DNA from: Pseudomonadales bacterium
GTDB taxonomy: Bacteria > Pseudomonadota > Gammaproteobacteria > Pseudomonadales > Azotimanducaceae
Assembly (NCBI GenBank): GCA_017854255.1
Contig: JAFMIA010000016.1
Span: 1 to 49,981 of the forward strand
Direction of reading: 5' to 3'
Length of the DNA: 49,981 nt
Shown here: piece by piece, positions 24,929 through 31,141 of the stretch
Layout: the number at the start of each line of letters is the position of its first letter
How positions within the stretch are numbered: the first letter of the stretch is position 1
Notes under the pieces: model-generated
Databases searched by the model: none
What the model was told of the DNA's origin: nothing
The model's input: the letters and a program-made list of their open reading frames with translations, nothing else
Position numbers and translations under genes: made by a program

Positions 24929-24946
24929 ACCCAATAGGAGAAACCC

Positions 24947-26086
24947 ATGGCAGAAGCCTTTATGGCCTACCCGGAGCTTCGAAACCCATTCGAGGCTAAA
25001 CCCATTCACCCCGAAGGCAGCGCGACGGTGCTGTATCAGGGCAAAGCCATCACCTTGTCGAGTCTTGGTAAAGGTGATGGTCTGTTAATCGACCCAGCTG
25101 ACCTGACCCAGATCAATGGCTTTGTCTTAAAGGCCGAAGGCGCTTGCTTCGAAGATTTGTGCATCCCAATGACGGATGATGTGTTGATCGAGCAGGATGG
25201 GACGCAATGGTTTAGCTTAACGGCCTTTGCGGCATTGTTAGGACAACCGTTTGTTGCGGATCATGAGGCTGGTGTTTGGAGCTTTGCTGAGATTCCAGCA
25301 AAACGCGAGAACATGATGCTGAATGCGCAGGCACCCGATCTTGAAATCACCGACCGCAAAGGTTCTGTGATCCGGATGGCGGATCTGAAAGGCAAAAAAG
25401 CGCTTATCGTGACGTGGTCCTCCTGGTGAGGCTGCTTTCTTGACGTGCCCGTGTGGCAACGTATTTATGAAGAGATAAACGATCCGAACTTTGTACTGAT
25501 CTGTGCGGCCGAGGATACCGGCGGAGAAGCTGCGGCGGGACCCATTTTTGATGCGGCTAATCCGACGTATATCCAGGTCATAGATGAAAATCACCTGATC
25601 AGCAGTGCGTTTAATTTTGTGAACGTGCCGTCCGCGGCCTGGATTGATGAGACGGGGCAAATCGTTCGAATAGATGAGGGCACCTACTCGATGCTTCATT
25701 CCTTCGGGGAAGGTGAACAGGCAATTTCATTCGGCACGGATGTGTACGAGCCCGCTTTGAAAGACTGGGTGGCCAAAGGCGCTGATAGCGAGCATGTGCA
25801 GTCCGCAGAAACGGTTGCCGGTAATATTCGGCAGCATTCAAGCGATCAACAGAAAGCGGATGCCGCTTTTCGGCTGGGGAACCTGTTCCGAATGTATGGG
25901 CAGGAGGCCAAAGCGGATCAGTATTGGGAGATGGCGCGTGAGTTGAACCCCGATAGCGTTAATTTCATCCGTCAGAATCTAACGCTCACGGAAGAAGGTT
26001 CGGCCGGCGAGACGTTTAGAGAGATGATGGGAGCGTACGTCAGTGCTGGTCGGGATTATTACCGCCCACTTGATATTAAACTTTGA
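24947..26086 (+). CDS. Thioredoxin-fold (redoxin/TlpA-like) selenoprotein; TGA at 25427-25429 read as selenocysteine
   Basis: One reading frame of 379 residues interrupted only by a TGA as codon 161; no frameshift is needed. Residues 1-110 are an uncharacterised N-terminal domain. From about 115 a redoxin domain begins (NAQAPDLEITDRKG). The strand KALIVTWSSW leads into Sec161-Gly162-Cys163, where related proteins carry the resolving Cys pair. The cis-Pro loop NVPSAAWIDETGQIVRIDEG follows, which is typical of TlpA/ResA folds. The C-terminus has a TPR-like stretch (AAFRLGNLFRMYGQEAKADQYWEMARELNPDS). No signal peptide is present. An ideal AGGAG lies 6 nt before the ATG. A SECIS-like hairpin follows the TGA and a terminator follows the gene. 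An automatic annotation would give two genes (24947-25429 and 25445-26086). Alternative: a recent nonsense mutation. Confidence 0.85.
25441..25462 (+). promoter_or_regulatory. Bacterial SECIS-like hairpin for selenocysteine insertion
   Basis: Downstream of the in-frame TGA (25427-25429), ACG-TGCC (25443-25449) pairs with GGCA-CGT (25455-25462, one bulged A at 25459) around the 5-nt loop CGTGT (25450-25454). The loop begins 20 nt after the TGA and has a G, followed by T, at its second position. This fits the published bacterial SECIS model: apical loop about 16-37 nt from the UGA and G within its first two bases. It lies within the coding sequence, as bacterial SECIS elements do. SelB would bind here. 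Confidence 0.7.
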
Positions 26087-26092
26087 TCTAGA

Positions 26093-26119
26093 GGGCGGGC
26101 GTTCAGCCCGCCCGCTTTT
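26093..26119 (+). terminator. Rho-independent terminator after the selenoprotein gene
   Basis: A perfect 8-bp GC stem (GGGCGGGC/GCCCGCCC) with a 5-nt loop, then GC and four T residues, begins 7 nt after the TGA stop at 26084-26086. It marks the true 3' end of the interrupted gene and argues that both halves share one transcript. Confidence 0.75.
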
Positions 26120-30141: not shown

Positions 30142-30614
30142 CTGCTGGGGCGCTGCCAGGTTTTTATTTTGCGTATGGCAGCAATATGGATGTTGAGCGG
30201 GTCCAGCTGCGCGGCATGGCCTTTGTTCGACGATGCTCCGGGCGGCTAGCAGGATACCGTTTGGTCTTTAATAAGCGTGCCAAGGGGGCGCAGGGGATTG
30301 CGCACGCCAACGTTGAGCCTTCGATCACCAGCGCGGTAGAGGGCGTGCTGTATGCGCTTGCCGCGCCCGAGAACATCCTCCAAATGGATCCTTATGAAGG
30401 ATATCCCGTCCGCTACAACCGCCGGATTCTGCCAATTGAAACCGAGACGGGCGTTGCGGCAGCTTGGGTTTATCAGGCGAATCCGCAGTTCATTGAAACC
30501 GGCTGCAAGCCAACGCAAAGCTACCTCAATCATTTATTAGCGGGCGCTGAGTTTCTGTCAGCATCTTACCTGGCGGACCTTATGGCAACACCCGTTGCAG
30601 AGGCGGTCTCTTGA
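30138..30614 (+). CDS. Gamma-glutamylcyclotransferase family protein
   Basis: A 158-residue protein with the glycine-rich substrate loop YGSN (residues 13-16) and the general-base Glu in MDPYEGYP (Glu87), as in GGCT/AIG2-like enzymes that release 5-oxoproline from gamma-glutamyl amines or peptides. The exact substrate is unknown. It is translationally coupled to tusA by ATGA and overlaps the epmC start (TTGA). Confidence 0.85.
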   Translation: MTAGALPGFYFAYGSNMDVERVQLRGMAFVRRCSGRLAGYRLVFNKRAKGAQGIAHANVEPSITSAVEGVLYALAAPENILQMDPYEGYPVRYNRRILPIETETGVAAAWVYQANPQFIETGCKPTQSYLNHLLAGAEFLSASYLADLMATPVAEAVS

Positions 30615-31141
30615 AGCCCCCAATGCCCGTCAGTCAGATCATCGAGGTCTTTAACAAGCGCCTAGGCGCGCGCTATGGCGTGCGGCTGAAAGGCGGCGGC
30701 GCCGAACCGTTTTATCAGGCGCCCAAGGCGGCTGAATGTGCTCTCATCGTTTTTCGAGCAGACTATAGCGCCAGTGCGCTGCATGAAGTGGCGCATTGGT
30801 GTTTGGCCGGCCCCCAGCGCCGGCTCTTGGATGACTATGGTTATTGGTACTTGCCAGCCCGAAATGCTGCCCAGCAAGCGGCTTTCGAGGCGGTTGAAGC
30901 CAGGCCCCAAGCGTTGGAAGCGCTTTTTGCCGAAGCAGCCGGGGTCGATTTTCAAGTCAGTAGTGATGACGTGGCATCCCTACCGAGTCCCGCTTTTAAG
31001 GCGCGGGTTGCGGCTGAGCGTCGCTTGATCGAGCAACAACTGCCGGTCAGGGCAAAATGCTTTCTGGCCGCGTTGCAGGGTGCCAATGCGTTAATTGTGC
31101 CAACTGCCTCGCGAACTGCCTCGCGCGCAGTGAATGGTTAA
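30611..31141 (+). CDS. epmC: Elongation factor P hydroxylase EpmC (YfcM)
   Basis: EpmC hydroxylates the beta-lysyl-lysine of elongation factor P. The 176-residue protein has the metal motif HEVAHWCLAG (His58, Glu59, His62) and the family DYGYWYLPARN and QAAFEAVEARPQALE. The start is either TTG at 30611, overlapping the previous stop with GAGG 8 nt upstream, or ATG at 30623. The last ten codons come from a 12-bp tandem repeat (TASRTASR) and the stop codon is inside an 18-bp repeat, so the C-terminus is probably recently altered. EpmA and EpmB are not in the window. Confidence 0.9.
   Translation: MKPPMPVSQIIEVFNKRLGARYGVRLKGGGAEPFYQAPKAAECALIVFRADYSASALHEVAHWCLAGPQRRLLDDYGYWYLPARNAAQQAAFEAVEARPQALEALFAEAAGVDFQVSSDDVASLPSPAFKARVAAERRLIEQQLPVRAKCFLAALQGANALIVPTASRTASRAVNG
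31102..31125 (+). repeat. 12-bp tandem duplication at the 3' end of epmC
   Basis: AACTGCCTCGCG is present twice in direct tandem, encoding the terminal TASRTASR. It lies just upstream of the 18-bp repeat block. Confidence 0.8.

What the first reader, a model, noticed from the sequence alone, without database searches (positions are those of the whole stretch)
24947..26086. Undocumented-looking selenoprotein: redoxin-fold gene with in-frame TGA at the active site (Trp-Sec-Gly-Cys)
One frame is interrupted only by a TGA at 25427-25429. The TGA falls immediately after TWSSW and before Gly-Cys, where the first redox Cys of a TlpA/ResA/redoxin domain belongs. Both sides read as one protein, with the cis-Pro loop NVPSAAWIDETGQIVR downstream. 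Frame, codon quality and a shared terminator after the second half argue against decay, and a SECIS-like hairpin follows at the correct distance. The UGC motif (one residue between Sec and Cys) differs from the usual CxxC, and the protein has an uncharacterised ~110-residue N-terminal domain and a TPR-like C-terminus. Automatic annotation would report two truncated genes.
Basis: partly seen in the sequence, partly recalled or inferred. Interest (0 to 1): 0.92.

Follow-up and report, generated by a model that had tools for sequence, protein, structure and literature searches.

The report
UGC-type TlpA-like selenoprotein in Pseudomonadales
This gene, which looks broken by a stop codon, most likely makes a redox protein whose active site carries selenocysteine; it is a little-noticed branch of an already recognised bacterial selenoprotein family.

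Summary
One frame (24947-26086) is interrupted only by TGA at 25427-25429, where a thioredoxin-fold protein should have its first redox residue (TWSSW-U-GC). Evidence for selenocysteine is strong but wholly computational. All 27 of 27 loci that cover the site keep TGA there. Distant relatives read WASWCGC, and the tree needs at least three Sec/Cys changes. Synonymous variation collapses just after the TGA, at a hairpin UGCC[CGUGU]GGCA that fits the bacterial SECIS model. The genome has selA, selB, selD and a tRNA-Sec. selB passes its cut-off in 4 of 4 tested Sec-form genomes and 0 of 4 Cys-form genomes. It is not a new kind: UGC-containing Prx/TlpA-like selenoproteins are catalogued since at least 2008, and NCBIfam NF041054 is the nearest model. 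New to the sources I could read is a separate WSSWUGC branch, which scores 235 bits against that model's cut-off of 300 and carries an N-terminal domain with an invariant Cys-x4-Cys that matches no solved structure. Most likely function: a soluble thiol-disulfide oxidoreductase or peroxidase, Sec161 attacking and Cys163 resolving; inferred, not shown.

The parts
24947..26086 (+). Selenoprotein gene, 379 codons plus stop, with TGA read as Sec at codon 161
   Evidence: Open frame apart from one TGA; full-length relatives with the same TGA
25427..25429 (+). In-frame TGA codon, proposed Sec161
   Evidence: TGA in 27 of 27 covering loci; TGC in six Cys-form relatives
25443..25462 (+). SECIS hairpin; core UGCC[CGUGU]GGCA at 25446-25458, loop starting 20 nt after the TGA; predicted local stem of 7 pairs with one bulged A
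   Evidence: Synonymous constraint; four apical pairs standard in 120 of 120 cells over 30 distinct rows; local fold; loop CGUGU in 20 of 20 loci L071-L090
25433..25435 (+). Cys163, second residue of the UGC motif, proposed resolving Cys
   Evidence: Invariant in alignments A1 and A4
25145..25162 (+). Cys67-x4-Cys72 (EGACxxxxCIP) in the N-terminal domain
   Evidence: Invariant in 13 of 13 rows of A4 and 26 of 26 rows of A5
24947..25306 (+). N-terminal domain, residues 1-120 (residues 1 to about 47 lie outside the NF041054 match)
   Evidence: AF2 pLDDT 82.6 alone; no PDB match with E below 0.28; no Pfam match at E up to 0.1
25322..25681 (+). Thioredoxin/redoxin-fold domain, residues 126-245
   Evidence: PF08534 over cut-off; best Foldseek matches 3kcm and ResA-type chains
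25856..25954 (+). TPR-like helical stretch, residues 304-336
   Evidence: Weak Pfam TPR matches below cut-off; helices in the AF2 model
24936..24940 (+). Shine-Dalgarno-like AGGAG upstream of the ATG
   Evidence: Read directly
26093..26119 (+). Terminator-like inverted repeat followed by a T run
   Evidence: Read directly; the terminator scanner was not run

Best explanation
The gene encodes one selenoprotein. SelB with Sec-tRNA-Sec, guided by the hairpin 20 nt downstream, reads the TGA at codon 161 as selenocysteine (well supported by comparison, not shown by experiment). The product is a thioredoxin-fold oxidoreductase of the UGC-containing TlpA/Prx-like kind. Inferred mechanism: Sec161 stands at the place of the first Cys of a TlpA/ResA CxxC, attacks a disulfide or a peroxide, and Cys163 resolves it to a Se-S bond. 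The invariant Cys67-x4-Cys72 pair in the N-terminal domain may then pass in the electrons that reset it. The protein is probably soluble in the cytoplasm, since no signal peptide is evident by eye.
For: TGA at the site in 27 of 27 covering loci. In 200 genomes of the same family 129 of 135 matches contain a TGA; of the other six, five are fragments that start at model position 157 or later, beyond the Sec position of about 139, and one is a CGC form. Sec/Cys pairs: TGA aligns with TGC in six Cys-form genes, and the tree needs at least three label changes. Synonymous diversity: the 12 lowest of 291 ten-codon windows all start at codons -3 to +8 relative to Sec, and codons +6 to +8 are GTG CCC GTG in 26 of 26 rows. 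The hairpin pairs survive residue changes: P to S through a U-G pair in L055 and L047, Q to R through a U-G pair in L047, and loop AGGUU in L062 and L096. Five of six Cys forms break one or more of the four apical pairs. Folded alone, nt 17-36 after the TGA form the hairpin in 34 of 35 Sec forms. Machinery: selB, selA, selD over cut-off and tRNA-Sec by ARAGORN. selB over cut-off in 4 of 4 other Sec-form genomes and 0 of 4 Cys-form genomes. Both halves are under purifying selection. Thioredoxin fold.
Against: No protein-level evidence. Covariation in the hairpin is not above shuffles (75 of 500 reach it) and two slid versions score higher on covariation (0.166 and 0.154 against 0.042), though they pair far fewer cells (60.0 and 55.3% against 82.7%); Pro, Trp and Gln codons fix most of the stem anyway. 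In the 57-nt fold the hairpin is the minimum-energy choice in only 24 of 35 Sec forms. One TGA-bearing relative, L097, breaks an apical pair and has further stops. The Rfam tRNA-Sec match is 45.8 bits, just under the gathering score of 47, and a tRNA-Ser scored 45.9; only ARAGORN's anticodon call separates them. In 200 family genomes selB at E up to 1e-50 (a threshold that 9 of 14 control genomes also pass, 2 over the cut-off) was found in 81 of 85 carriers and 98 of 115 non-carriers, which is weak support; the four carriers without it are drafts listed as 73 to 96% complete. Two of the four Cys-form genomes are 83% complete or 8% contaminated. The function steps (nucleophile, resolving Cys, N-terminal relay, location) are inference.
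Confidence: 0.95

Rival explanations
1. Decayed or mis-sequenced gene: the TGA is a nonsense mutation or an assembly error.
For: Many of these genomes are draft MAGs; one relative (L017) shows a frame disruption after the site and L097 looks degraded.
Against: TGA in 27 of 27 loci, 69-95% identical to the window protein in the 21 aligned, with synonymous sites far more changed than replacement sites on both sides of the TGA.
Confidence: 0.01
2. Two genes or a regulated split: the 160-aa N-terminal piece and a 213-aa piece from GTG 25445 are made separately by coupled reinitiation.
For: GTG at 25445 lies 15 nt after the TGA and a GAGG (25428-25431) precedes it. Some truncated product at the TGA is expected in any selenoprotein gene.
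Against: Cys-form relatives are single uninterrupted frames. A split would cut the thioredoxin domain through its active site and leave Cys163 untranslated. Constraint on synonymous codons centres on the hairpin.
Confidence: 0.02
3. TGA is recoded as another amino acid (Cys or Trp) genome-wide or by suppression, not as Sec.
For: Cys relatives show that Cys works at the site.
Against: The same gene ends in TGA, as do relatives such as L016, L031 and L033, so TGA is a stop elsewhere. SelA, SelB, SelD and tRNA-Sec are present, and 4 of 4 genomes with only CGC forms have no selB over its cut-off.
Confidence: 0.02

Closest known systems
NCBIfam NF041054, WAxxUGC_long (ResA-like WAxxUGC motif-containing protein)
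   Same: UGC active site, N-terminal Cys-x4-Cys and alignment over residues 48-350 at 1e-69. All 13 rows of A4, window included, match it at E up to 1e-5 (only the window's score is shown there). A same-genome paralogue (L047) passes it with 406.9 bits.
   Different: The window protein scores 235.5 against a cut-off of 300; motif WSSWUGC, not WAxxUGC; a longer N-terminus, part of which is shared with the CGC forms L057, L058, L060 and with L062; separate clade (98/90 support).
UGC-containing Prx-like / TlpA disulfide reductase selenoprotein family (pfam00578 / cd02966; PMC2398784, PMC9312934, PMC13188914)
   Same: UGC motif in a Prx/TlpA-like fold; listed among families found in the GOS samples, where it was more abundant in nonmarine ones (table row and passage).
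   Different: I could not compare sequences: supplements were not available and the example accessions were not fetched, so whether this branch was among the 2008 sequences is unknown.
ResA / TlpA thiol-disulfide oxidoreductases (PDB 3kcm, 1st9, 1jfu)
   Same: Thioredoxin fold, Foldseek E down to 6.8e-10 over the central domain.
   Different: UGC in place of CxxC; extra N- and C-terminal domains; no signal peptide or anchor evident by eye.

Membership tests
Bacterial selenoproteins | In-frame TGA conserved across species | tested here: met
   27 of 27 covering loci
Bacterial selenoproteins | Cys homologues aligned at the TGA | tested here: met
   Six CGC genes, at least three label changes
Bacterial selenoproteins | SECIS-like hairpin 16-37 nt downstream with G in the first two loop positions | tested here: met
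   UGCC[CGUGU]GGCA, loop 20 nt after the TGA; model taken from PMC13188914 (passage); covariation inconclusive
Bacterial selenoproteins | Host encodes SelA, SelB, SelD and tRNA-Sec | tested here: met
   over cut-off; tRNA-Sec by ARAGORN, 45.8 bits against 47 in Rfam
Bacterial selenoproteins | Selenium in the protein | not testable with these tools
   Needs 75Se labelling or mass spectrometry
NF041054 WAxxUGC_long | Score over the curated cut-off of 300 bits | tested here: not met
   235.5 bits
NF041054 WAxxUGC_long | Motif WAxxUGC (taken from the family's name) | tested here: not met
   WSSWUGC in the window and 27 of 27 covering loci
UGC-containing Prx/TlpA-like selenoproteins | UGC motif in a Prx/TlpA-like fold | tested here: met
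   PF08534 over cut-off, PF00578 just under (25.2 against 26)
UGC-containing Prx/TlpA-like selenoproteins | Sequence kinship with the published members | not tested
   Published sequences were not fetched
ResA/TlpA proper | CxxC active site | tested here: not met
   UGC or CGC in the members read
ResA/TlpA proper | Extracytoplasmic location | not tested
   No signal peptide seen by eye; no predictor available

The most novel reading that the evidence does not exclude
A distinct selenoprotein subfamily (WSSWUGC) in which a previously unrecognised N-terminal domain with an invariant Cys-x4-Cys works as a built-in electron relay for a UGC selenenylsulfide centre, giving a self-contained three-domain redox enzyme unlike single-domain TlpA or Prx proteins.
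Probability: 0.3. Interest if true: 0.55.

Novelty: new member of a known kind. Interest (0 to 1): 0.38.

Why it matters
The NCBIfam model does not reach its cut-off on this branch, so annotation that relies on that model would be expected to leave two truncated genes; a revised model would mend that. The repeated Sec/Cys swaps, with no selB over cut-off in the four Cys-form genomes tested, make a natural set for asking what Sec buys at a UGC/CGC site, and the Cys-x4-Cys domain is a testable redox partner.

Tried and rejected
Gene neighbourhood: apart from the two halves of the gene itself, no neighbour family is shared by more than five of 28 loci (window plus 27, several of them short), so context gives no clue to function. 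Copper amine oxidase-like N-domain: suspected by eye; Pfam gave nothing and Foldseek on the N-domain alone gave no match with E below 0.28, so it is dropped. N-domain in other contexts: in 38 genomes its hits fall in genes of this family or in fragments, none seen with another partner (judged from positions, not by reading every locus). Spread: 9 of 293 order genomes (E 1e-20), 3 of 369 class genomes and 2 of 398 phylum genomes (both E 1e-25) match, the query genome included in each. Co-occurrence with selB inside the family is weak. Covariation in the hairpin is not significant.

Papers: no hit for NF041054, WAxxUGC or WSSWUGC in the held library; the other searches are (listings only, save for the papers named here). 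The two Haft papers cited by the 2026 review are not held and were not seen. PMC12013277 was searched for six terms with no occurrence. PMC2398784, PMC9312934 and PMC13188914 were seen as passages (and an outline of the last). A look-up of the model MDE0950781.1 or MBL6689828.1 sequences was not attempted.

Full report
Observation. The frame from ATG 24947 to the TGA at 26084 is open except for TGA at 25427-25429. The TGA lies between TWSSW and GC, at the first redox position of a thioredoxin-fold domain. PF08534 covers residues 126-245 over its cut-off, and phmmer finds 3kcm and ResA chains. Without recoding the region gives two ORFs.

Conservation of the TGA. A scan of genome contigs gave 28 loci. 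One (L043) ends before the site. The other 27 all have TGA there; the 21 aligned are 69-95% identical to the window protein. In 200 genomes of the same family, 85 carry the gene or its paralogue in 135 matches, and 129 of these contain a TGA (sum checked). Of the six without, five are fragments that start at model position 157 or later, beyond the Sec position of about 139, and one is a true CGC form. I checked where the TGA lies only in loci fetched: it is at UGC in 19 of 19 of L072-L090 (L079 is the same gene as L053), in L071 and L096, and in L097, which looks degraded. The two class-level genomes read WGSYUGC with TGA and an insertion inside the thioredoxin domain, which is why they appeared as two pieces.

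Sec/Cys pairs. In 293 genomes of the order, nine match. Five genes in four of these genomes have no TGA and read WASWCGC, with TGC at the aligned codon; a sixth is L091. selB is over its cut-off in 4 of 4 other Sec-form genomes and 0 of 4 Cys-form genomes. The sixth Cys form sits in a genome that has selB and a Sec paralogue. A tree of 19 proteins needs at least three Sec/Cys changes, and places seven WSSWUGC proteins in their own clade (98/90), apart from the WAPYUGC proteins that include the same-genome paralogue.

SECIS. Ten-codon windows of synonymous diversity were ranked over 26 aligned genes; the 12 lowest of 291 all start at codons -3 to +8 relative to Sec. Codons +6, +7 and +8 are GTG CCC GTG in 26 of 26. 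They lie in UGCC[CGUGU]GGCA, whose loop starts 20 nt after the TGA; this fits the published bacterial model (16-37 nt, G in the first two loop positions; PMC13188914, passage). Over 35 Sec forms (30 distinct) the four apical pairs are standard in 120 of 120 cells, but covariation does not exceed shuffles (75 of 500) and is higher in two slid controls, because the protein sequence fixes most of the stem. The better evidence is at the positions the protein leaves free and where the protein changes: P to S and Q to R keep pairing through G-U pairs, and proteins with PG or SG in place of PV keep the stem with loop AGGUU (L062, L096). Of six Cys forms, one keeps all four apical pairs and five break at least one. 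Nt 17-36 folded alone form the hairpin in 34 of 35 Sec forms; in the 57-nt fold it is the minimum-energy choice in 24 of 35. Against: a permissive SECIS rule is met by 278 of 1048 plus-strand TGAs in the window, and L097 breaks a pair.

Machinery. In the window's genome, selB (370.5 bits), selD (252.8) and selA (563.9) pass their cut-offs, with selA next to selB. ARAGORN calls a tRNA-Sec with anticodon tca at C91; its Rfam score of 45.8 is just under 47 and close to that of a tRNA-Ser at 45.9. The gene itself ends in TGA, so TGA is also a stop here.

Selection. Against 19 relatives, synonymous differences are 0.36-0.90 per site and replacement differences 0.03-0.27 in the 5' part and 0.03-0.18 in the 3' part. 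Both halves are kept as protein.

Architecture. AlphaFold2 gives pLDDT 87.4 and pTM 0.87. The listed Foldseek matches (best 50) are thioredoxin-fold proteins. The N-terminal domain alone (pLDDT 82.6) has no PDB match with E below 0.28 and no Pfam match at E up to 0.1. Cys67 and Cys72 are invariant in 13 of 13 and 26 of 26 rows. Cys186 is not: L055 and L056 have Ser. The C-terminus has weak TPR matches.

Known or new. NF041054 WAxxUGC_long matches at 235.5 bits, cut-off 300; the paralogue at C26 has 406.9. UGC-containing Prx-like selenoproteins appear in the 2008 GOS table (PMC2398784, passages), in a 2022 review (PMC9312934, passages) and in a 2026 review as a TlpA family (PMC13188914, passages). 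I found no paper naming NF041054 or the WSSWUGC motif in the held library. I therefore file it as a new member of a known kind.

Mechanism. Shown by comparison: TGA conserved, Cys replaces it, machinery present, hairpin under constraint. Inferred: Sec161 as nucleophile (it takes the place of the first Cys of the CxxC in the phmmer alignment with 3kcm), Cys163 resolving, Cys67/Cys72 as relay, cytoplasmic location. That CxC motifs can act as disulfide isomerases is recalled; one search gave only a listing. Substrate and partner are unknown; gene context does not help.

Noticed in passing
L047 (G000:C26:9632-10726, - strand): Second UGC selenoprotein gene in the same genome (WAPYUGC), a paralogue that passes NF041054.
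   Followed up: yes
L056, L062, L064 (genome G255): One genome carries three UGC selenoprotein paralogues and two selB-like loci; contamination is listed at 6%, so the copies may come from two organisms.
   Followed up: partly
L091 (G1009:C130:6700-8300): A CGC (Cys) form in a genome that also has selB and a TGA-bearing paralogue, so a Cys version is kept beside the Sec machinery.
   Followed up: partly
L092, L093 (G603:C44, G382:C51): Class-level Sec forms with another motif, WGSYUGC, and an insertion inside the thioredoxin domain.
   Followed up: partly
window 34268 (+) and 10023 (-): Two other long frames interrupted by a single TGA; the flanks do not look like redox sites and they were not pursued.
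   Followed up: no
window 30611-31141: EpmC-like elongation factor P hydroxylase gene (PF04315).
   Followed up: no
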